Below, one piece after another: positions 32,363 through 42,624 of a stretch of 64,000 bases of DNA (within the stretch, counting starts at the first letter, position 1; the number at the start of each line of letters is the position of its first letter). The position numbers and the translations under genes are program-made. The stretch comes from an uncultured Bacteroidales bacterium. GTDB lineage: Bacteria > Bacteroidota > Bacteroidia > Bacteroidales > Muribaculaceae. The notes beneath the pieces are model-generated. The model made no database searches. It was not told the DNA's origin and saw nothing but the letters and a program-made list of their open reading frames with translations. The stretch lies in NCBI GenBank assembly GCA_902776955.1, contig CACYSG010000004.1, positions 1 through 64,000 on the forward strand. The letters are read 5' to 3'.

Positions 32363-33232
32363 TTAGCGGGGGAATTGGAGCAGGAAAGTCGTGTGGAAGT
32401 CGGGGCGGGGATCGTCGAGCAGCGACATCATGCCGCCCTGGATGGTAAGCAGGCGACGGCTAAGCGACAGGCCGATGCCGTTACCCTTGCGCTTGGTGGT
32501 GAAGAAGGGGATGAAAATCGACGAACGTGCTTCGGCGGGAATCAGTTCGCCATTGTTGCTCACGTACAGGAATACTTTTCCTTCAGGACCGGCTTCGATT
32601 TCCATGCCTAGGGCCTTGGCGCCGGCCTCGATGGCGTTCTTGATGAGGTTGATGAGAATTTGGCGCAGCAGGTTAGGGTCGGTCTTGATGATCATGGACT
32701 CGGGCATCTTGTTGCGCCATTCCACATCGTTGAACAGCTGCTGGACTTCGCAGGCCACGCTGCACAGGTCAACCGACTGGGGGACAGGCTTCTGCAATTC
32801 GGAATACTTGCGGTAGCCGTCGATAAATGAGTTGAGGTGCAGCACCGTGTTGTGGATGGCATTGATGCCCTCCTCGAGTTCCGAGCCCTTGACGGCGGGG
32901 TGGCACAGCATCGACTGGCTGATGCTCGCGATGGGGGCGGTGGCGTTCATGATCTCATGGGTGAGCACGCGGGTGAGTTTTTCCCACGACTCCACCTCGC
33001 CTAGGTTGACCTGTTCGCGGATGTGCTCGCCCAGTTGGTTAAGGGTCTCCTGCAACGCCCGCTCACCGCTGAACATGTGGCGCGTGGGCAGTTGGAAAGT
33101 CAGGTCGTGGTTGCGGATGGCTTCCTGCATGATGTGGGCGCGCTGCACCAGCGAGCGCTGGTGGCGCCAGAACCACAGTCCCACCACGGCGATGATGGCG
33201 ACACTGACCCAGATGACCGTCGAGAGTTCCAT
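32363..33232 (-). CDS. Sensor histidine kinase (NtrY/NtrB-like, minimal sensor)
   Basis: 289 aa. One N-terminal membrane helix (about 5-22) and no recognisable periplasmic sensor. A HisKA-like helix with LTHEIMNATAP (His92 is the likely phospho-acceptor) and a HATPase_c domain follow (N box LINLIKNAIEAG near 195, G box TTKRKGNGIGLSL near 255). The short N-terminus implies that it senses membrane or cytoplasmic cues, or works with a partner such as the ABC permeases encoded downstream. Three bases after the stop of its cognate regulator gene. Confidence 0.92.
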   Translation of the reverse strand: MELSTVIWVSVAIIAVVGLWFWRHQRSLVQRAHIMQEAIRNHDLTFQLPTRHMFSGERALQETLNQLGEHIREQVNLGEVESWEKLTRVLTHEIMNATAPIASISQSMLCHPAVKGSELEEGINAIHNTVLHLNSFIDGYRKYSELQKPVPQSVDLCSVACEVQQLFNDVEWRNKMPESMIIKTDPNLLRQILINLIKNAIEAGAKALGMEIEAGPEGKVFLYVSNNGELIPAEARSSIFIPFFTTKRKGNGIGLSLSRRLLTIQGGMMSLLDDPRPDFHTTFLLQFPR

Positions 33233-33235
33233 TGA

Positions 33236-33763
33236 TTATTCCAGTTTCTTCATCTTGTTATAGAGCGTCTGCCGAGTGATTCCCAGCAGCTCGGCCGCCT
33301 TCGACAGGTTGCCATGGCAACGGTCGAGGGTGCGGCGAATGTGATCGGCCTCAACCTCGTCGAGCGTGGCCAGCTCGTCGCGCGCCTCGAGCACGTCCTT
33401 GAGCTTGCGCACCAGCTCGTCGTTGTCCCACGGCTTGGTGACGAAGTCGGCGGCGCCGCGCTTCAGCCCCCTCACGGCCAGCTGCACGTCGGCATAGGCC
33501 GTGATGAGCACCACGGGAATCTCGGGGTGGTGCTTGCGAATGGCCTGGAGCCACACCAGACCGTCCTGCCCGCTGTTCACACCCAGTGTGAAATTCATGT
33601 CGAGCAGGATGAGGTTCACCTCCTCCTGTCCGAGCAATGATATGACCGACTCGGGTGATGTCAGGGTAATCACCTTCTCAAACATTCCTGACAGGCAATA
33701 CCTCAATGCGGTGAGGATGCCCTCGTTGTCGTCTATGACCAATAATGTTCCGTACTTCTGCAT
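33236..33763 (-). CDS. Response regulator: receiver plus Fis-type helix-turn-helix, no AAA+ domain
   Basis: 175 aa. The receiver domain (about 1-125) has Asp11/Asp12, phospho-acceptor Asp55 (LILLDMNF) and Lys110 (FVTKPWD). After a short linker (about 115-138) comes a Fis-type DNA-binding domain (139-175, RRTLDRCHGNLSKAAELLGI, RQTLYNKMKKLE), as at the end of NtrC proteins. The sigma-54-interacting AAA+ domain of NtrC (about 240 residues) is missing without a visible frameshift, so this resembles the RegA/ActR plan. It should act at ordinary housekeeping promoters. Likely binding sites TGTCTA-N5-TAGACA lie about 90-125 bp upstream of its start and again before the ABC operon. Confidence 0.93.
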   Translation of the reverse strand: MQKYGTLLVIDDNEGILTALRYCLSGMFEKVITLTSPESVISLLGQEEVNLILLDMNFTLGVNSGQDGLVWLQAIRKHHPEIPVVLITAYADVQLAVRGLKRGAADFVTKPWDNDELVRKLKDVLEARDELATLDEVEADHIRRTLDRCHGNLSKAAELLGITRQTLYNKMKKLE

Positions 33764-33850
33764 AACGGCAGCGAAGTTACAACTTTTATCGGTTTTCTCC
33801 CAAGAATAAATCGACTAATTCTCGCTTTTTTGCCCTAATTTCTGTAATAG

Positions 33851-33867
33851 TGTCTATTTTTTAGACA
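33851..33867 (+). promoter_or_regulatory. Operator A1, perfect dyad TGTCTA-N5-TAGACA
   Basis: 17-bp dyad with a 6-5-6 plan, centre 33859. Identical half-sites occur at 36549-36565. It lies between the response-regulator gene (leftward) and a rightward promoter. Confidence 0.75.
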
Positions 33868-33873
33868 GGTGCC

Positions 33874-33890
33874 TGTAAAAAATTTAGACA
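33874..33890 (+). promoter_or_regulatory. Operator A2, weaker dyad
   Basis: TGTAAA-N5-TAGACA, centre 33882, 23 bp from A1 and 58 bp before the -7 box at 33940. Confidence 0.65.
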
Positions 33891-33914
33891 ATCGCCGTTT
33901 TTCACCTCAATTAT

Positions 33915-33947
33915 CTTGACTCGGGTGAACATGGCGGCTTAACTTTG
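33915..33947 (+). promoter_or_regulatory. Rightward promoter A (candidate small RNA)
   Basis: -33 CTTG (33915-33918), 21-bp spacer, -7 TAACTTTG (33940-33947). It aligns without gaps to promoter B at 36613-36645, including GACAATCGsCGTTTTT upstream and TTGCAyCAGC at the start region. Confidence 0.7.
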
Positions 33948-33952
33948 CATCA

Positions 33953-34140
33953 GCCGAACGGGAAAAACCCCGACGGCAACAAGAAACCACACATAACCAC
34001 ACGAAGGCAGCATTTTGGAAAATTACCTGATTATCATTGATACAATACAACAAAATCTAAACATCAAAGTCTAAACATCGTTTCATAAGAAAGGCGAAGC
34101 CGATTTCGAGGAAATTCCCGAAACCGGCTTCAATCTTTTT
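33953..34140 (+). ncRNA. Candidate regulatory small RNA, about 190 nt
   Basis: A segment between promoter A and a strong terminator with no ATG in any forward frame. It starts with a GCCG..GGG/CCC..CGGC hairpin (about 33952-33978), has an A-rich unstructured middle with AAATCTAAACATC/AAGTCTAAACATC near-repeats, and ends in the terminator stem. It would be controlled by the same operators as the ABC operon. No homologous RNA family is recognised; expression is not proven. Confidence 0.45.
34096..34140. terminator. Rho-independent terminator, probably bidirectional
   Basis: GAAGCCGATTTCG (34096-34108) pairs with CGAAACCGGCTTC (34119-34131) with one mismatch, then CTTTTT on the plus strand. It also lies just after the stop of the convergent gene at 34155. 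Confidence 0.85.
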
Positions 34141-34154
34141 ACGCCCTTGTGGCG

Positions 34155-36047
34155 TTATTTAGCGTAGAGCAATCGGTTGAGCATCGTCGTCACATCGGTG
34201 ATGGAGCCTTCCTCCTCACCGTTGCACATGCGGTTCAACTTCTGGGTCACGCTAGTGATGCTGAGCGTGGGGCTGAATTGGAATTGACCGCCGTTGGTGA
34301 AGTATAGGCTGTTCCAATCGTAATAGTCTTCCGCTAACACGGGATCAGCTGAGGTGAGCATGGTTCGTACCCATGTGATCTTGTCGGGGGCGATAACATG
34401 ACCCGTGCAACCCTCTGTAAGTTGATCAACCGAGTTAAGAAGTAATGGGAAAGAGTAGTTATAATCGTCGCCCACCGCCTGGAAGGGGAAAGAAACGGTG
34501 CCGTCAGGCCGTATAATCATGTAGTTCATACCGAATTTGCCGTACAGGTTATGAACATATAGGGTAGTGTCATCAACCTGATACATATAGACGTATTCAC
34601 TCCTTATCCGCATTTCCCAACCAATACTGTTGCCGCCTACGGGATGTGACGTCAACGACAGTTTGGGGTTGTCGCCGGGCCTTGTCCATTCAATGCCACT
34701 GCCGCCACTGTTGCCGGGCTTGATGGGCTTGCGGCCACCGATACCCAGAATATCATAGTCATTACCAGTCTTTGATATGAATTGTGAACCATTTATTACC
34801 GTGGCATTTATTAGCGAACTTACATCGAAGAAGCCCTTTGGCCTAATGCCGTTGTCGTCGCCTTCGCCAGCCGACTGAGGGCTCATCCTGGGGTTGTCAC
34901 CGGGCCTTGTGAAGCTCTGGATGTCGCCAGAGCCTGCGCCAGGCTTGACGGGCGGCCTACGGCCGCCGCAACCTGTCGGATCGCAAACCTTGCCAAAGTA
35001 GGTGGAGGCGAAGGCGGACAGATCTGCTCCGGAGAAAGAGACAAATTTCTTCAGACCAGTACCGTTGCCGCCAGGTGACGGTGCATTCGACTTGGGCGTG
35101 AGGCCAGGTAACGACGAGTCTGGCTCATCGCCGGGCCTCGTCCAGTCAAGGCCACCGTTGCTACCGGGCTTCACCGGTTTGCGGCCACCGAAACCCATTG
35201 TACCTGCGCCGTCATTCACTATATTAAAAATAATATCACCGAATTTGCGACCGACGCCGTGAAGAACTCCTGGGTTAATAGAAGTTGTTTGGGGGAGATA
35301 GTCGTGCTTGCCGTTAGGAACCATCAGCAAGGTGTTGGTGAAAAGCGGTGAGCACGTCCACGTCGTGTCGATGGAAGGATCGCTGCCGATGGCAGTTGTT
35401 CGGGTAATGGTCTCGATGAGGAAGACAAAAGCGTCAGTAATGCCGATGCTGCCATCTTCTATCATATAGCCCGTGATGTAGTTAGGATCTTGAACTCGAC
35501 CTACCGAAATCGACTCTTCAGGCACCACATAATAATTGATAAGCGTATCTCTCACGATCTGATCACCATCTGGTGCTGTGATTTGGCGGTAAATGGTCCA
35601 TACCAAGCCCGACGGGATGATACCTCCTTCTTCAACATCAATTCTGAAAGGCAACGGAGCAGGTCCATAGAAGTTGGGTATGACCATCATACCCTCATCC
35701 TCAGTCGCCTCGGCGTCAGCAATAATACCCATTTGGAACTGCTCGCCAGTATTGCCGGTCTCGAAATCGTACTCATGCATTTCGTACGAGATAATTCTGG
35801 GTCCGGTCAATTCCTCGGCCGTCAAGCGGCGGGGTGATTTCTTGGCCAGGAGGTTATCGCGCAGCGTGAGGTTGTGCTCACTCATGAACTGCGCTAGGGA
35901 CATCGCCTCGTCCTGGAATGCCGGGGCGTCACTTTCATTCGTTTGGGCATTGGTCATCCGGGGAGATAAGTTCTCATGCGGCTGACTCGCCAGCATGCTC
36001 AACCCCACACTGGCACCCAGTAACATTGCAAATAATAATTTCTTCAT
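34155..36047 (-). CDS. Secreted protein with three approx. 75-residue GGRKPxKPG/TRPGD repeats and a dockerin-like end
   Basis: 630 aa, not recognised as a known family. Signal peptide about 1-20 (MKKLLFAMLLGASVGLSMLA). The region 40-280 is a large N-terminal domain without known motifs. Three units open at about residues 282, 357 and 433 with GGRKPVKPG, GGRRPPVKPG and GGRKPIKPG followed by TRPGDxP. The C-terminus (about 605-630) is NRMCNGEEEGSITDVTTMLNRLLYAK-like, i.e. a degenerate half of the ITDV dockerin-type motif seen in the proteins at 16881 and 23503. It is inserted between the two-component genes and the ABC operon that share operators. Probably cell-surface; function unknown. Confidence 0.75.
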   Translation of the reverse strand: MKKLLFAMLLGASVGLSMLASQPHENLSPRMTNAQTNESDAPAFQDEAMSLAQFMSEHNLTLRDNLLAKKSPRRLTAEELTGPRIISYEMHEYDFETGNTGEQFQMGIIADAEATEDEGMMVIPNFYGPAPLPFRIDVEEGGIIPSGLVWTIYRQITAPDGDQIVRDTLINYYVVPEESISVGRVQDPNYITGYMIEDGSIGITDAFVFLIETITRTTAIGSDPSIDTTWTCSPLFTNTLLMVPNGKHDYLPQTTSINPGVLHGVGRKFGDIIFNIVNDGAGTMGFGGRKPVKPGSNGGLDWTRPGDEPDSSLPGLTPKSNAPSPGGNGTGLKKFVSFSGADLSAFASTYFGKVCDPTGCGGRRPPVKPGAGSGDIQSFTRPGDNPRMSPQSAGEGDDNGIRPKGFFDVSSLINATVINGSQFISKTGNDYDILGIGGRKPIKPGNSGGSGIEWTRPGDNPKLSLTSHPVGGNSIGWEMRIRSEYVYMYQVDDTTLYVHNLYGKFGMNYMIIRPDGTVSFPFQAVGDDYNYSFPLLLNSVDQLTEGCTGHVIAPDKITWVRTMLTSADPVLAEDYYDWNSLYFTNGGQFQFSPTLSITSVTQKLNRMCNGEEEGSITDVTTMLNRLLYAK

Positions 36048-36180
36048 AATATCAATGTTTAGATTCTATTATAATTTTGGTCTTCTCCTTGTTATGAGTT
36101 GGACATCATAAAACATGGAAACTCCCATGAACGCTGGGCTTCAGGCTATTGCCGTTACCCGCAAACGATATTTTGGAACG

Positions 36181-36210
36181 CAAATATACCTATTATATGA
36201 TGGAGTTCCA
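36181..36210 (-). promoter_or_regulatory. Promoter of the 630-aa secreted protein
   Basis: -7 TATATTTG (CAAATATA at 36181-36188 on plus), with TTGG (36207-36210... read on minus) at 19-bp spacing as a weak -33. The leader is about 125 nt. Confidence 0.5.
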
Positions 36211-36548
36211 ACCCAAAAGCGCTGTTTAACTTAAATTTAATACTAAATTACAATAATTAACAAAATATCAGCAGCAAGGAATCACTCTTCCCAACAATGC
36301 TCACACAGGTCCCTTAAGGTGAAAAAATAATGTTTATGGTAGGACTTTAGAGGGATTTTTGCTGCTTTCAATCTGTTTCGCCCCCTGAAAGGGGCAAAAT
36401 CAGGAGTTTTTGCCCGCGTCGTGACGTATTTCTCTATGTGATGGCTACAATTTGAGGCTGAATCTTGTTAGATAGGTGATTAACGGCGTTTGAAATGATC
36501 TTGGCGGCCCGGTGAACAGATGGTACCATGAGGTTAAATCGGGCCAGG

Positions 36549-36565
36549 TGTCTAATTTTTAGACA
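36549..36565 (+). promoter_or_regulatory. Operator B1, perfect dyad TGTCTA-N5-TAGACA
   Basis: Same half-sites as A1; centre 36557. It lies upstream of the ABC permease operon. Confidence 0.75.
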
Positions 36566-36571
36566 ATATAG

Positions 36572-36588
36572 TGTATGATTTTTTGACA
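36572..36588 (+). promoter_or_regulatory. Operator B2, weaker dyad
   Basis: TGTATG-N5-TTGACA, centre 36580, again 23 bp from the perfect dyad and 58 bp before the -7 box. Confidence 0.6.
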
Positions 36589-36612
36589 ATCGGCGTTTTT
36601 GGCCCCAAAATA

Positions 36613-36645
36613 CTTGTCACATGCCGGCAATACATATTATATTTG
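36613..36645 (+). promoter_or_regulatory. Promoter B of the ABC transporter operon
   Basis: -33 CTTG (36613-36616), 21-bp spacer, -7 TATATTTG (36638-36645). The start near 36652 leaves a leader of about 360 nt before the permease; its first part can fold as CAAGacGGAAC/GTTCCgCTTG. Confidence 0.7.
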
Positions 36646-36839
36646 CACCAGCAAGACGGAACTTGTTCCGCTTGATGAGTAATAGGGATTAATAATTTTT
36701 TTCATAAATCTTTGGTTAATATGATGGTTAAAACGTGATTTGAATGTGGCGATGATTTAACGCAGACCTCGGGCTTTTCTGGCAGTTGTGGCTGATCATG
36801 GCCACGGTAAAATGAAGAACCTAATTGTTTAAATCTAAA

Positions 36840-36922: not shown

Positions 36923-37015
36923 GCGTTGTTATAAAGGGGGCACTCTGGCACATGACAAGGCAATATCATGAGGAGGTTTTACGTTATATTAAAAAGGCCT
37001 ATAGTATTAACCGGT

Positions 37016-39448
37016 GTGAAAGATATACTCAAGAACATCATCTACATGGCGAGGCGCTTCAAGCTGGCCACGACTTTTAACATGGTCGGGCTGGTCGTGG
37101 CGTTTGCCACCTTCTACCTGCTGATGACCCAGATCATCTATGAGGTCAACTTCAATCATGGGTTGAAGGATTATGACCTCCTTTACCGCATGGAGGATGA
37201 CTTCGTCTATAACGAGTGGGAGTTCAGCGATGCGGTGTGTCGCCCCTTTGCCGAGGCCCTGGACTCGATGCCTCAAGTGGACTGCTATTCGCTGGTTACC
37301 GATGTTTCCACCGGCAACAATTTGAGCTATTACACGATGCTGTTCCTGAAGGACGGCGTCGAGATCCCCTATATCGTCACCTATGGCAATAACACGGTGG
37401 TGAGCACGCTCACCGACAAGGTGCTCGATGGCAGTATCGAGTGGACCGACGACGACAGCAAGGGCCTCATCATCCCGGCCAGCATAGCGATGGAATACTT
37501 CGGGTCGGTGCACGTGAAGGGCCGCATCATGACCTACCGCGACCCGTCAGACCCGGCGGTGCGACGGTCTAGGGTGAGGGGCGTGTTCGCCGATTTCCCC
37601 TCCAACAGCGAGCAGTCCAATCACGTCTATAAGCACATGGGCGATATGAACATGAACAGCCTTAATTGTGCCTTCAAGTGCGTCGTTAAGTTCAAGACGG
37701 TGCCTGACGACCTGGATGCTTTTGCCGAGGATATCAAGCGGCAATGTATCGAGAACCTCATCGCCAGTAGCAGCGCGACCCTTGCGTCTGATGAACTGAG
37801 TCAGTCGATACGCGCCATCAGGACGACGCGTTTCAAGTTCACGCCGTTGAAGGACAGCTACTTCGAGTACTCGTCATTCACCTCGAGTGATAGTGGCTAT
37901 AAGGTGATGTTGACGATTCTGGAGCTGGCGTGCTTATTGGTCATCATCATCGCTGTCATCAATTTCTTGAATTTCACCTTGACCGAGAGCCCTGTCAGGG
38001 TGCGTAGCCTCAACACCCGCATCGTGTTCGGCGCATCACGGCGGCGCTTGCGTCTGAGCCTGATTGCCGAGTGTGTCATCACGGCGCTCGTGGCCTGTGT
38101 GATTGCGTTGGCGTTGTGTGCCCTGTTGTCGCGGCAGCCGTTCATCGCCCAGTTGACCGATGGCGTCATTGACTTGCGCAGCAACATCATGTTGGCGCTG
38201 TCTATGCTGGGCATCGCGGTCCTCGCAGGTGTTGCCGCAGGCCTGTATCCGGCGATGTTCGCCACCTCGTTCCCGCCCGCACTGCTGCTCAAGACGACCT
38301 TAGGGCTCACCCCTCAGGGCCGCCGCCTGCGCACCGTCTTGATATGCATGCAGTTGGCAATCTCTCTGCTGCTGGTTATGTACATCGGCATCCTCTATAT
38401 GCAGAACCGCTATATCTTCACCTCGAATTATGGCTACAACAAGGATAGGATTATGGTCTCGTTGTTGCCGGTGTACTCCGACGTAGAGACACTGCAGCAG
38501 GAGTTGAAACGCTTGCCGGGTGTTGAGAATGTGGCGCTATCTAATGTGCTGCTGGGCTCTACCGATGGCCACGACGCGCTGCGTACCGAGGCCAACGACA
38601 GCCTCATCCGCTATTGCCAAATGGGTGTTGACAATGGGTTTATGTCCACCATGGGTATCAAGATTATCGAGGGACGCGACTTTGAGGAAAGTGACACGAT
38701 GGCCATTATCGTCAACGAGTCCACCATCAAGAAGTGGGGCTGGCCTAAGCTGGGAACGCGCGTGTCGATCGGTTTTGACGAGGAGAAGAACGACAGCGCC
38801 ACTGTGGTGGGTGTGTGCGAGGATATACGCTATGGCACGATACGCATCGGCAATGACCAGCCGTTTTTCTTTATCCTCGACAAGTCAGAACAGGCAACCC
38901 CAGGCTGTGGACTGAATGTCCTTCTTGCCGAGGGTGCCCCAAAGAAGCAGGTGATGCAACAGGCCAACAAGCTGATCAAGCAGTATTGTGGCGAGGACGC
39001 TAACGGGCTCATCCCCTTTGACGATATGCTGGGAGATGCCTACCACAGCGAGTTGCGCTATTTCCAGCTGATTTACTACCTGACGATAATCTGCTTGATT
39101 TCCACGCTCATCGGAGTGTCGTGCATGACGATTTTCGAGACCGAGCATCGCCGCAAGGAAATCGGCATACGCAAGGTGGCGGGCGCCACGACCGGCGAGA
39201 TCGTGATGATGTTCTGCCGCCATTATATGTGGCTCATCCTCATCGGCTTTGTCATCGCTGCGCCCATTGCCCTGTGGTGCGGCTGGGAGACACTCAAGAA
39301 TTTTGCCGACAAAACGCCCGTCTCACAATGGTGGTGGGTGTTCCCCGTGGGCCTGTTGCTCGTGGGAGGCGTCACCCTGGGGACCGTGGCACTGCAATGC
39401 TGGTATATCGCCCGCGAGAATCCCATCACCAGCATCAAGAACGAGTAG
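37016..39448 (+). CDS. ABC transporter permease (MacB/FtsX type), first copy
   Basis: About 810 aa. Two FtsX-type halves: helix 1 (about 20-42) and a periplasmic MacB_PCD domain, helices near 300, 355 and 395, then a second helix-periplasmic domain-three-helix set starting near 435 and ending near 800. The cytoplasmic coupling motif ETEHRRKEIGIRKVAGAT is present. I prefer the GTG at 37016 (VKDILKNIIYMARRF), which aligns with the start of its paralogue (MGDALHHIIYTIRRF); an in-frame ATG at 36968 would add 16 residues. First gene of a permease-ATPase-permease operon. Type VII-ABC proteins of this kind move no substrate through the membrane; they act mechanically on periplasmic partners or in peptide resistance and signalling. 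Confidence 0.9.
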   Translation: MKDILKNIIYMARRFKLATTFNMVGLVVAFATFYLLMTQIIYEVNFNHGLKDYDLLYRMEDDFVYNEWEFSDAVCRPFAEALDSMPQVDCYSLVTDVSTGNNLSYYTMLFLKDGVEIPYIVTYGNNTVVSTLTDKVLDGSIEWTDDDSKGLIIPASIAMEYFGSVHVKGRIMTYRDPSDPAVRRSRVRGVFADFPSNSEQSNHVYKHMGDMNMNSLNCAFKCVVKFKTVPDDLDAFAEDIKRQCIENLIASSSATLASDELSQSIRAIRTTRFKFTPLKDSYFEYSSFTSSDSGYKVMLTILELACLLVIIIAVINFLNFTLTESPVRVRSLNTRIVFGASRRRLRLSLIAECVITALVACVIALALCALLSRQPFIAQLTDGVIDLRSNIMLALSMLGIAVLAGVAAGLYPAMFATSFPPALLLKTTLGLTPQGRRLRTVLICMQLAISLLLVMYIGILYMQNRYIFTSNYGYNKDRIMVSLLPVYSDVETLQQELKRLPGVENVALSNVLLGSTDGHDALRTEANDSLIRYCQMGVDNGFMSTMGIKIIEGRDFEESDTMAIIVNESTIKKWGWPKLGTRVSIGFDEEKNDSATVVGVCEDIRYGTIRIGNDQPFFFILDKSEQATPGCGLNVLLAEGAPKKQVMQQANKLIKQYCGEDANGLIPFDDMLGDAYHSELRYFQLIYYLTIICLISTLIGVSCMTIFETEHRRKEIGIRKVAGATTGEIVMMFCRHYMWLILIGFVIAAPIALWCGWETLKNFADKTPVSQWWWVFPVGLLLVGGVTLGTVALQCWYIARENPITSIKNE

Positions 39449-39491: not shown

Positions 39492-40166
39492 ATGATACAA
39501 GTTAGCAATCTCAAGAGGGTATTTGAGTACGGTGACATCCAGACGGTTGCTCTGGGAGGCATCAACATGGAAATCAGCGATGGCGAGTTTGTAGCCATCA
39601 TGGGCCCGTCGGGTTGCGGCAAGACGACGCTGCTCAACATTCTGGGCCTGCTGGACAATCCCACGGGCGGCAGTTACCTGCTCGACGACGTGGAGGTGGC
39701 CAACCTGAAGGAGAGCCAGCGCACCAACCTGCGCAAGGGGCAGATCGGCTTCGTGTTCCAGAGTTTCAACCTCATCGACGAACTCACGGTGGAGCAGAAT
39801 GTGGAGTTGCCGCTCAAGTATATGGGTGTTCCCGCCGCCGAGCGCCAGGCCAAGGTCGTTGAGGTGCTGCGCCGTGTGAACATGTCTCACCGCATGAAGC
39901 ACTTCCCCAACCAGCTGTCTGGCGGCCAGCAGCAGCGCGTGGCCATCGCGCGGGCTGTCGTGTGCGAGCCGCGCCTGATTCTGGCCGACGAGCCGACGGG
40001 CAATCTGGACAGCAAGAACGGCAAGGAGGTGATGGACCTGCTGGCCGAACTCAACGACGACGGCACGACCATCGTGATGGTGACCCACTCTCAGCGCGAC
40101 GCCTCCTACGCCCACCGCGTTGTCAACATGCTCGACGGCTTCCTCGTCGAGAAAACCGAACTCTAA
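39492..40166 (+). CDS. ABC transporter ATP-binding protein (MacB/LolD type)
   Basis: 224 aa, a complete ATPase subunit: Walker [10 protein letters not shown] (about 38-46), Q loop [11 protein letters not shown], signature [14 protein letters not shown] (about 140), Walker [13 protein letters not shown] (about 160) and H loop VTHSQ. Its size and the [13 protein letters not shown] segment are typical of MacB/LolD/FtsE-class ATPases, which pair with FtsX-fold permeases. It lies between two paralogous permease genes and probably powers a heterodimer. Confidence 0.95.
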
Positions 40167-40224: not shown

Positions 40225-42624
40225 ATGGGCGACGCGCTTCATCACATAATCTATACGATACGCCGATTCAAGACCTCCTCGGTGCTGATCATCACGGGGC
40301 TTATCGCGGCATTTGTCGTATGTTATCTGCTGTTGACTCAAATCGCGTTCCAGGCGACATACAACCATGGCATCAAGGACCATGAGCGGATTTACCGCCT
40401 TGAAAACGCCTACGTCAGAGAAAGTAGTGAGCCTTGGGGTACCGCCAGTTTTCAATTTATGGCCGATGCTTTGGCCGAAATGCCGCAGGTCGAAGGCGTG
40501 ACTTTGACAATGTATGCCTGGTCTTCAAACGTTATTAAGTTCAAACAGGGAAACAAAGATGTTGATCTCCCCTTCATTTACTGCAGTGATACCAGTGTGC
40601 CCAACCTGACCGACCAGGTGATTGACGGCTCCCTCGAGTGGACCGACGCCGACCGCGACCAAGTTATCCTGCCTGCCAGCATCGCCAAGCAATACTTCGG
40701 GACGACTCATGTGGCCGGCAAAAAGATGCTCATGGTCAGCAACGACAGCATTGAGCCTCTCACCGTGAAAGGTGTATTCAAGGATTTCCCCGAGAACAGC
40801 ACGCCCCGCAACTATATCATGGTTAATGTGAGAAATCGTGGCACAAGCCTAGTAGGCAACATGTCATACACCTGTCTGGTCAAGTTCAAGGAGGGTGTCG
40901 ATGTCGACTGCTTGGCAGATTCTCTCCTCGGGCGTTTCGAAGCCTACTCTGTGCGACTGCTTGGAGAAGATAATGATGGGCTTGAAGGTTTTGTTGAGTA
41001 TCTCAGGAGTTTCAAGTATCGGCTCACACCACTCGATGATGTCTATTTTTCCAATGTTGACGCAAGTGATATGGGTAATCGCAATGCATTGGAAATTATC
41101 GAGTTACTGGTCCTGTTGATCCTCATTATCACTACCATCAATACGTTGAACTATACTTTGGCCATGAGTCCGATGTGGGTGCGAGACATCAACACGAGAA
41201 TCGTGATAGGGGCCAAGCGGTCGTCCATAAGACTGCGGCTCGTTGCCGAGACCGTCATCATAACGGTAGTGTCCTGCCTGCTGGCGTTTGCCCTGTGCCA
41301 AGCGCTAACGGCACTGCCTGCCGTGAACCGATTGTTTGACGGCAACATCGCATTGAGCGCTCATCCGGGCATCATTCTGGCCATGCTGGGCCTTGCAGTG
41401 CTCGTGGGCGTCATTTCCGGGGCCTATCCCGCCTATTTCGCGACTTCATTCCAGACGGCGACCGCACTGAAAGGCCGCTTCGGCCTTACCTCCAAAGGCA
41501 TCAGGCTTCGTACCTTGCTCATCGGCCTGCAACTGGTCATCTCGATGTTCCTCGTGTCATTCATCTGCACGTTGAACCAGCAGACCCGATTCATCTTTAA
41601 CTCGGATTACGGCTTTGACTTTGAACACTTGGTCTATGTAGACCTGCTCCCCCAGGAGCCTGATTACCGTGAAGCGCTGCGAGACGATCTGATAAGCCTT
41701 CCCGGGGTGGAGGATGTGTCCTATTCCAGGTTTGTCATTGCCACCATGGATAAGTACATGAGTTATTTCCATGAGGCCAGTTCAAAAGACACGACAAAGA
41801 TCATTCACCTTTTCGTGTTCCCTGTGGATCAGCACTATCTTTCCACTCTGGGCATTGGACTTGTCAAGGGACGAGAGTTCAAATCAACTGATGAAATTGA
41901 CAAATGCATCATCGTCAATGAGTCCCTGGAGAAGATTATCAACGATGGTGAAATAAAGACGAACATCATTTCGGATAGTAGTTATGCCGACATTGTGGGC
42001 GTGTGCAAAAACATCCGTTTTTCAACCGTTCGCTCCGACAGAAACACGCCCATTGCGTTTGTTCATGACAAGGATCATGATTTCTGCTGGACGGCCAACA
42101 TACGTATCGCCCAGGGCGCTGATAACGATGCCGTCAAGAAATCAATCGCTCAACTCGTCAAGAAGCACTGCGGCTACGACTCATCATCAGTCATAGATAT
42201 GAAAACCTCTCTGGATGAGTCCTATAGCAATGAATTCAGGTTCGTGAAACTGGTATATCTTTTCTCGATAGCCTGTATTATCATCATGCTGGTGGGAGTG
42301 TTCTGCCTGACGATGCTGGAGACCGAGTACCGGCGCAAGGAAATCGGTATCCGCAAGGTGGCAGGAGCCACGTCGGCCGACATCATCGGCATGCTGTGCA
42401 AGCGCTATTGCCTGTTGATTGTGGCTTGTTTTGTCATTGCTGCGCCCGTCGCCTATTTCATCAGTGATATGTGGCTCAACAGCTTTTTTGAGCACCAGCC
42501 CATCAACTGGTGGCCATTCCCGCTCAGCCTGGTAGTGGTGGGAGGGCTCACGATAGGCACCATCGTGCTGCAATGCTGGCGAGCCGCCCACGAGAACCCC
42601 GTGAACAGCATCAAGGACGAGTAA
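40225..42624 (+). CDS. ABC transporter permease (MacB/FtsX type), second copy
   Basis: 799 aa, paralogous along its whole length to the gene at 37016: the same double FtsX plan, coupling motif ETEYRRKEIGIRKVAGATSADIIG and an almost identical C-terminus (ENPVNSIKDE against ENPITSIKNE). The two permeases probably form an asymmetric pair with the ATPase encoded between them. No membrane-fusion (HlyD) or TolC gene is in the operon, unlike MacAB-TolC exporters. Downstream is the convergent rlmD gene, 14 bp away, with no obvious terminator. Confidence 0.93.
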   Translation: MGDALHHIIYTIRRFKTSSVLIITGLIAAFVVCYLLLTQIAFQATYNHGIKDHERIYRLENAYVRESSEPWGTASFQFMADALAEMPQVEGVTLTMYAWSSNVIKFKQGNKDVDLPFIYCSDTSVPNLTDQVIDGSLEWTDADRDQVILPASIAKQYFGTTHVAGKKMLMVSNDSIEPLTVKGVFKDFPENSTPRNYIMVNVRNRGTSLVGNMSYTCLVKFKEGVDVDCLADSLLGRFEAYSVRLLGEDNDGLEGFVEYLRSFKYRLTPLDDVYFSNVDASDMGNRNALEIIELLVLLILIITTINTLNYTLAMSPMWVRDINTRIVIGAKRSSIRLRLVAETVIITVVSCLLAFALCQALTALPAVNRLFDGNIALSAHPGIILAMLGLAVLVGVISGAYPAYFATSFQTATALKGRFGLTSKGIRLRTLLIGLQLVISMFLVSFICTLNQQTRFIFNSDYGFDFEHLVYVDLLPQEPDYREALRDDLISLPGVEDVSYSRFVIATMDKYMSYFHEASSKDTTKIIHLFVFPVDQHYLSTLGIGLVKGREFKSTDEIDKCIIVNESLEKIINDGEIKTNIISDSSYADIVGVCKNIRFSTVRSDRNTPIAFVHDKDHDFCWTANIRIAQGADNDAVKKSIAQLVKKHCGYDSSSVIDMKTSLDESYSNEFRFVKLVYLFSIACIIIMLVGVFCLTMLETEYRRKEIGIRKVAGATSADIIGMLCKRYCLLIVACFVIAAPVAYFISDMWLNSFFEHQPINWWPFPLSLVVVGGLTIGTIVLQCWRAAHENPVNSIKDE

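What the first reader, a model, noticed from the sequence alone, without database searches (positions are those of the whole stretch)
33851..36645. Two homologous control regions with identical geometry link a receiver-Fis regulator to an ABC operon
Seen directly: at 33851-33947 and at 36549-36645 there is a perfect dyad TGTCTA-N5-TAGACA, a weaker dyad exactly 23 bp further (centres 33859/33882 and 36557/36580), and a -7 box starting exactly 58 bp after the weaker centre (33940 and 36638), with CTTG -33 boxes at 21-bp spacing in both. The two align without gaps. The first copy is next to a response regulator with a Fis-type helix-turn-helix; NtrC-class proteins, whose DNA-binding domain is of that type, bind dyads of the same 6-5-6 plan (TGCACC-N5-GGTGCA is the NtrC consensus). 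Inference: these are the regulator's sites, placed at about -65 and -88, where an activator could contact a housekeeping promoter.
Basis: partly seen in the sequence, partly recalled or inferred. Interest (0 to 1): 0.85.

Follow-up and report, generated by a model that had tools for sequence, protein, structure and literature searches.

The report
Gene regulator that swapped promoter class
Two look-alike control regions in a bacterium, likely from an animal gut, belong to a conserved set of paired DNA sites at one fixed distance from the promoter, and they are likely read by a small neighbouring regulator that is predicted to have lost the ATP-powered part its relatives carry and would now switch on exporter and protease genes from ordinary promoters.

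Summary
It is not chance: the full element (two dyads 23 bp apart, TAnnTTTG 58 bp from the nearer centre) occurs 8 times in the 3.23-Mb genome, reversed control 0. Of 247 family genomes, all 11 with an orthologue of the regulator carry it, against 4 of 236 others. Upstream of 82 of 91 regulator genes the pair recurs, with the -7 box at exactly 58 bp in 69. Operator spelling follows one recognition-helix residue. So these are very probably the regulator's sites. New here: relatives of the regulator with an AAA+/sigma-54 domain use the same kind of tandem dyad, but 62-64 bp before a -24/-12 promoter, at the same kinds of exporter genes. The window's regulator clade lacks that domain and uses housekeeping promoters; in this genus targets include secreted peptidases. 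Copy 1 fires away from the regulator into a gene-free stretch; copy 2 faces the ABC operon, but the two nearest relatives lack both copies. Binding and activation are untested.

The parts
33851..33867 (+). copy 1, distal dyad TGTCTA-N5-TAGACA
33874..33890 (+). copy 1, proximal dyad TGTAAAAAATTTAGACA, centre 58 bp before the -7 box
33916..33947 (+). copy 1 promoter: TTG (33916-33918), 21-bp spacer, TAACTTTG (33940-33947); points away from the regulator gene
33948..34146 (+). gene-free stretch after copy 1, with a hairpin at 34095-34132; possible short RNA (inferred)
   Evidence: fold of 33953-34146 z -4.05; the hairpin is listed as terminator-like on the - strand only; no Rfam match here, the single sub-threshold match lies elsewhere; no ORF of 25 codons starts in it
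33236..33763 (-). response regulator, 175 aa: receiver + Fis-type HTH_8, no AAA+ domain
33772..33803 (-). weak candidate promoter of the regulator itself: TTG-N21-TAACTTCG
   Evidence: sequence; inference
32363..33232 (-). histidine kinase, 289 aa, one N-terminal hydrophobic segment, no sensor domain found
34155..36047 (-). 630-aa secreted-type protein without family match, lying between regulator and ABC operon
36549..36565 (+). copy 2, distal dyad TGTCTA-N5-TAGACA
36572..36588 (+). copy 2, proximal dyad TGTATGATTTTTTGACA
36614..36645 (+). copy 2 promoter: TTG (36614-36616), 21-bp spacer, TATATTTG (36638-36645)
36968..39448 (+). FtsX/MacB-type ABC permease, first gene after copy 2
39492..40166 (+). 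ABC ATPase of the MacB type
40225..42624 (+). second FtsX/MacB-type permease

Best explanation
The two regions belong to a conserved set of promoters in which two 17-bp dyads 23 bp apart stand 58 bp before a Bacteroidota -7 box, and they are likely bound by the adjacent 175-residue receiver-Fis regulator, which is predicted to descend from NtrC-type sigma-54 activators by loss of the AAA+ domain and would now activate housekeeping RNA polymerase directly. Shown: the element, its geometry, its co-occurrence with the regulator gene, the covariation of operator and recognition helix, the missing AAA+ domain, and the same kind of operator at sigma-54-type promoters of AAA+ relatives and their exporter genes. 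Inferred: that phosphorylated dimers fill both dyads, centred at about -65 and -88, and recruit polymerase from there; that the AAA+ domain was lost rather than gained; that the promoter class changed with it. In this genus the sites also stand before secreted peptidases and other ABC transporters, so the output would be an envelope or peptide response. Copy 2 would switch on the ABC operon. Copy 1 probably sits where the exporter operon of the ancestor stood and now faces a gene-free stretch.
For: Composite element 8 times in the genome, reversed control 0. Family: 11 of 11 genomes with an orthologue (62-100% identity, short frame, E below 1e-70; the cut was set after seeing the list, in a gap between 6e-74 and 7e-49) have 39 sites in all; 4 of 236 others have one hit each; reversed control 2 hits in 247 (Fisher 3e-16). 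Genus: 9 of 9 against 0 of 17 (same calls). Regulator loci: 82 of 91 with the pair by a lenient score, -7 box at 58 bp in 69, at 57 or 59 in 4, at 80-89 in 7 more places; by a stricter score 45 of 91, with 41 boxes at 57-59 and one sigma-54-like box, at 51. Covariation: TGTATG in at least 3 of 4 half-sites in 9 of 9 loci whose residue 169 is A, K or R, and in 1 of 73 with N. AAA+ relatives: dyad pair in 15 of 36 loci, reversed control 0 of 36; 11 of the 15 have a -24/-12-like box, 9 of them at 62-64 bp; none has TAnnTTTG at 57-59, though two have it at 54 and 56. Same locus plan, regulator-kinase divergent from TolC-HlyD-permease, in L186 and L187, whose regulators have Sigma54_activat at 222 and 219 bits. 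Order-wide search for pair plus TGGC-N7-TTG: 21 sites in 12 of 149 genomes, control 0; 20 of 21 were parsed and 18 of these lie before a gene with a BLAST hit to a TolC, HlyD, permease or ATPase query, L202 and L217 not. Tree: the AAA-less clade is one group (99/100) lying among AAA+ rows. RpoN is present in this genome.
Against: No binding, phosphorylation or expression data. The two closest relatives by regulator sequence (G025, G410) and G370 keep the regulator but have no dyads at the regulator or the ABC operon; their sites lie elsewhere. Copy 2 before the permease is clear only in the window and L018, with one good dyad in L173, among 14 loci in which that stretch was read (two pairs of these are probably the same genome). 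Copy 1 has no gene to drive. 21 of 36 AAA+ loci showed no dyad pair by my criterion; 4 of the 15 with a pair showed no sigma-54 box, L186 among them, and one pair (L131) is poor. The covariation rests on few independent changes (at least 2 on the tree), and L089 is an exception. The tree is rooted at the midpoint with many open forks, so loss rather than gain of AAA+ is an inference from the spread of AAA+ rows.
Confidence: 0.77

Rival explanations
1. The regulator binds these dyads but acts as a repressor, or mainly to control itself, rather than as an activator of the 58-bp promoters.
For: In many Prevotella-type loci the dyad nearer the regulator ends about 25 bp before the regulator's own start codon, a place fit for autorepression; the sign of the effect was not tested.
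Against: A fixed 58-bp distance to the downstream -7 box in 69 of 82 loci and at 8 places in this genome is what contact with polymerase from upstream would select; at these promoters the sites lie upstream of the -33/-7 region, not over it; AAA+ relatives, which should be sigma-54 activators, place the same kind of pair upstream too.
Confidence: 0.15
2. Another DNA-binding protein that usually accompanies this regulator reads the dyads; the regulator is only a neighbour.
For: In G025, G410 and G370 the sites found lie away from the regulator gene, and co-occurrence alone cannot tell two linked genes apart.
Against: Operator spelling tracks a residue of this protein's own recognition helix; the pair sits at its gene in 82 of 91 loci; 15 of 36 loci of homologous AAA+ regulators carry the same kind of pair.
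Confidence: 0.07
3. The AAA-less form is ancestral, or stems from a separate short family that met this operator; no AAA+ domain was lost.
For: The tree is midpoint-rooted with many open forks; other AAA-less groups exist in the family.
Against: AAA+ rows lie on all sides of the AAA-less clade in that tree; identity to long-frame homologues over the receiver is up to 56%; the same locus plan with HlyD 65-69% and TolC 40-43% identical exists with AAA+ regulators.
Confidence: 0.12
4. Chance dyads in A/T-rich DNA, or a repeat element.
For: In the window alone a loose dyad search is not beyond shuffles.
Against: Composite searches: 8 against 0 reversed, 39 sites in 11 genomes against 4 in 236, 16 against 0 in ten genomes behind named loci; the bases between the fixed positions differ among sites.
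Confidence: 0.01

Closest known systems
NtrC-family bacterial enhancer-binding proteins (receiver + AAA+ + Fis-type HTH)
   Same: Receiver and Fis-type HTH, dyads of the 6-5-6 plan, kinase partner; nearest homologues outside the clade have NtrC length, two were shown to have all three domains
   Different: No AAA+ domain, so no GAFTGA-type loop; promoter with -33/-7 boxes instead of -24/-12
ActR/PrrA/RegA redox response regulators (receiver + Fis-type HTH, no AAA+)
   Same: Same two-domain plan and size
   Different: NCBIfam NF033791 scores 64.6 bits against a cut-off of 250; nearest kin here are Bacteroidales NtrC types; their operator and targets, as recalled, differ
Caulobacter and Rhodobacter capsulatus NtrC: enhancer-binding proteins without GAFTGA that act at sigma-70 promoters (PMC10274813, passages read)
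   Same: An NtrC-type regulator uncoupled from sigma-54 and working at housekeeping promoters
   Different: They lack only the loop of the AAA+ domain; here the whole domain is absent, and related genomes show the same kind of operator at both promoter classes
Predicted sigma-54 control of FtsX-like ABC permeases (COG0577) in Bacteroidia (PMC12316311, passages read)
   Same: Same class of target genes in the same class of bacteria; fits the AAA+ relatives
   Different: The passages I read predict promoters; they name no operator, regulator or promoter-class switch

Membership tests
NtrC-family enhancer-binding protein | receiver domain | tested here: met
   PF00072, 75.1 bits
NtrC-family enhancer-binding protein | central AAA+ / Sigma54_activat domain with GAFTGA-type loop | tested here: not met
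   absent in the 175-aa protein; present in L186 and L187
NtrC-family enhancer-binding protein | Fis-type HTH (HTH_8) | tested here: met
   PF02954, 63.1 bits
NtrC-family enhancer-binding protein | target promoters of the -24/-12 class | tested here: not met
   of 45 loci with the pair by the stricter score, no sigma-54 box at 62-64 bp (one at 51) and 41 TAnnTTTG boxes at 57-59; G000 has 0 sigma-54 composite sites
ActR/PrrA/RegA | curated family model NF033791 | tested here: not met
   64.6 bits against cut-off 250
Bacteroidota housekeeping promoter (sigma-ABfr) | TAnnTTTG at -7 and a TTTG-like box near -33 | tested here: met
   -7 boxes TAACTTTG and TATATTTG; a TTG 20-21 bp upstream in 24 of 31 aligned sites, copies 1 and 2 included; here the box reads CTTG, not TTTG; consensus as quoted in PMC7366714 (passages)
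MacB/FtsX-type ABC exporter | FtsX permease with MacB_PCD and MacB-type ATPase | tested here: met
   PF02687, PF12704, PF00005
Regulator-operator pair | direct binding of the regulator to the dyads | not testable with these tools
   comparative evidence only

The most novel reading that the evidence does not exclude
A natural change of promoter class at a kept operator: in one branch of the Bacteroidales an NtrC-type regulator shed its whole AAA+ domain, its kinase shed its sensor region, and the same tandem operator moved from 62-64 bp before sigma-54 promoters to exactly 58 bp before housekeeping promoters, after which a local exporter switch grew into a regulon with secreted peptidases.
Probability: 0.65. 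Interest if true: 0.85.

Novelty: new variant of a known kind. Interest (0 to 1): 0.74.

Why it matters
Sigma-54 activators and housekeeping-promoter activators work by different means, ATP-driven remodelling against recruitment. How a regulator crosses from one to the other is, as far as I know, argued mostly from single proteins. Here both states are seen in related genomes, with the same kind of operator, the same kinds of target genes and related partners, so the steps can be tested by ordinary binding and reporter assays in commensal species.

Tried and rejected
Single-dyad searches in the window: not significant. Exact dyad in 61 genomes (relatives and own): 8 have it, five of them once, so it is too strict and too unspecific for the regulon; composite patterns replaced it. 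A regulated small RNA from copy 1: the stretch folds well (z -4.05), but the hairpin reads as a terminator on the strand of the 630-aa gene, the stretch has no match among ten other downstream stretches compared and Rfam gives only one sub-threshold match elsewhere, so it stays a possibility. Filing the regulator under RegA/PrrA: rejected on score. AAA+ homologues without the loop as half-way forms: rejected, all 36 have it as G[AS][FY]T-x-A variants, most often GAFTDA. A wider claim that the ABC operon is always a target: rejected. Of the four hits in genomes without the regulator, by eye G346 holds one G/C-centred palindrome, G384 a pair of other inverted repeats, G365 and G378 no dyads. Nine paper searches listed no paper whose title or abstract start describes this system; three papers were read in passages, the rest seen as listings, so it may still be in print.
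Full report
WHAT IS THERE. Both control regions are exactly as described: a perfect TGTCTA-N5-TAGACA dyad, a second dyad of the form TGT-N11-ACA 23 bp on, a TTG box with a 21-bp spacer, and a -7 box (TAACTTTG, TATATTTG) 58 bp after the second centre. They match at 61 of 97 positions. Copy 1 lies between the response regulator (33236-33763, minus strand) and a 630-aa secreted-type protein that also runs on the minus strand; its promoter points along the plus strand, away from the regulator. Copy 2 ends about 320 bp before the first gene of an ABC operon of two FtsX/MacB-type permeases and a MacB-type ATPase.

IS IT CHANCE. In the window alone the loose dyad is not beyond shuffles. In the genome, the composite pattern with up to 3 mismatches of 22 fixed bases has 8 matches, all with 0 or 1 mismatch, and the reversed pattern none. 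The 8 include the two window copies. A ninth place (L004) has an exact dyad 80 bp before TATCTTTG with a weak second site (counted by hand).

WHAT LIES BEHIND THE OTHER SITES. First genes at the other sites in this genome: an ABC-2 ATPase and permease, though about 460 bp away (L105); an S41 peptidase (L106); a C10 peptidase (L107); an S8 subtilase (L108); a 313-aa secreted-type protein that by eye shares the C-terminal tail of the L107 and L108 proteins (L109); two small hydrophobic proteins and an M16 peptidase (L110); and, at the ninth place, another M16 peptidase followed by what look like a kinase and a regulator (L111). In relatives, of ten first genes scanned, Pfam named an S41 peptidase, a C10 peptidase, a CAAX-type protease, a DUF805 protein, a BspA-type repeat protein and an outer-membrane efflux protein; four had no match.

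DOES THE REGULATOR OWN THE SITES. I searched the same 247 genomes of the family for the composite pattern (18 fixed bases, up to 1 mismatch) and for the regulator. Eleven genomes have an orthologue (E below 1e-70, short open frame; the cut lies in a gap of the list and was set after seeing it); all eleven have sites, 39 in all. Of the other 236, four have one hit each; the reversed pattern has 2 hits in the 247. In the window's genus, 9 of 26 genomes have the regulator and sites; 17 have neither. Species are related, so the Fisher values (3e-16 and 3e-7) overstate independence, but the sites sit at different genes and come and go with the regulator.

GEOMETRY AT THE REGULATOR GENE. By a lenient score 82 have the tandem pair within about 330 bp upstream; nine do not (L019, L026, L052, L080, L084, L086, which lies at a contig end, and the loci of G410, G025 and G370). 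In the 82, TAnnTTTG on the strand away from the regulator stands at 58 bp in 69, at 57 in 2, at 59 in 2, and 7 further boxes lie at 80-89 (distances 40-89 scanned). By a stricter score 45 of 91 have the pair, spacing 23 in 42, and 41 boxes lie at 57-59, four elsewhere (30-109 scanned).

COVARIATION. Two operator spellings occur. TGTATG in at least 3 of 4 half-sites is seen in 9 of 9 loci with A, K or R at residue 169 and in 1 of 73 with N (L089). Residue 169 lies in the recognition helix (TRQTLYNKMKKLE); the mapping onto Fis contact residues is recalled, not tested. On the tree the label needs at least 2 changes, so the count of loci is not a count of events.

THE ANCESTRAL LAYOUT. In Prevotella-type relatives the regulator-kinase pair is divergent from a TolC-HlyD-permease operon, and the composite element stands before that operon. 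In ten genomes behind named loci a composite search gives 16 sites, control 0; 13 of the 16 first genes have a BLAST hit to a TolC, permease or ATPase query, and L227, L228 and L230 have none. In the window's genus a secreted-type gene often lies in between instead; in G357 the promoter at the regulator faces an M16-type peptidase (by eye).

THE AAA+ RELATIVES. In 149 genomes of the order, the matches at E below 1e-30 other than the window's own have open frames mostly of 440-520 residues. The 36 loci that I used all have the ESE-(L/M)-FG...G-(A/S)-(F/Y)-T motif of sigma-54 activators; the domain itself was checked with Pfam in two, L186 and L187 (222 and 219 bits), which also carry the same locus plan. 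Of the 36 loci, 15 have a dyad pair at 21-23 bp, reversed control 0 of 36; 11 of these have a sigma-54-like box of at least 9 of 11 matches, at 62, 63 or 64 bp in nine, at 72 and 73 in two. None has TAnnTTTG at 57-59; three have it at 54, 56 and 102. A search of the order for pair plus TGGC-N7-TTG gives 21 sites in 12 of 149 genomes, control 0, nine of them in one genome (G141). Twenty were parsed (L215 failed my parser): 18 have a BLAST hit to TolC, HlyD, permease or ATPase queries; L202 and L217 have none. This fits a published prediction that FtsX-like permeases of Bacteroidia are under sigma-54 (PMC12316311, passages read).

LOSS OF THE DOMAIN. In a tree of receiver plus HTH (70 rows) the AAA-less clade is one group (99/100) lying among AAA+ rows; other AAA-less rows lie apart from it, and starred branches force at least 3 label changes for AAA+. 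The root is a midpoint. The kinase looks smaller too: 11 of 12 kinases of the AAA-less clade read here are 277-299 aa with one hydrophobic window (L178 was read as 263 aa with none), against 357-435 aa with two in all seven AAA+ loci read; of two such kinases scanned, a PAS domain was found in L187 and not in L186. RpoN is present in this genome, so sigma-54 itself was not lost.

HOW IT MOST LIKELY WORKS. Inferred: the kinase phosphorylates the regulator, dimers fill both dyads, and the pair, at about -65 and -88, recruits housekeeping polymerase. The fixed 58 bp and the A-rich stretch before the -33 box fit contact with the polymerase alpha subunits; this is not tested. The signal is unknown; targets suggest peptides or envelope stress.

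WEAK POINTS. No experiment. G025, G410 and G370 lack the dyads at the regulator and ABC operon while keeping sites elsewhere. Copy 2 is clear only in the window and L018. Copy 1 has no gene. The family of the host rests on record titles of near relatives (L021, Muribaculaceae; others are titled Prevotellaceae or Bacteroidales) and 95% identity of a neighbouring gene to L021.

NOVELTY. AAA-less receiver-Fis regulators and NtrC types that act with sigma-70 are known (RegA/PrrA, recalled; Caulobacter and Rhodobacter NtrC, PMC10274813, passages read). What I did not find in the nine paper searches named in Tried and rejected is the same kind of operator at both promoter classes in related genomes.

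Noticed in passing
window 36690-36708; also L017, L018, L020, L023, L174, L176 downstream of the promoters: A motif close to AATTTTTTCATAA recurs downstream of several of these promoters; no explanation.
   Followed up: no
L179, L180: A separate AAA-less regulator group has a single TGT-N11-ACA dyad about 51 bp (counted by hand) before TAACTTTG, perhaps an independent promoter-class change.
   Followed up: partly
L107, L108, L109 C-termini: Three secreted-type products behind the sites share by eye a C-terminal tail that resembles a type IX secretion signal (recalled; not tested).
   Followed up: no
window 32363-33232: The kinase has one hydrophobic segment and no sensor domain found; it may sense through a transporter partner (inference).
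   Followed up: partly
window 34155-36047: 630-aa repetitive secreted-type protein without Pfam or NCBIfam match; diverged relatives at the same place in several genus loci.
   Followed up: partly
G026 (L010, L013, L015, L016): A genus member outside the family draw has four exact dyads, two of them a perfect tandem pair 23 bp apart.
   Followed up: no
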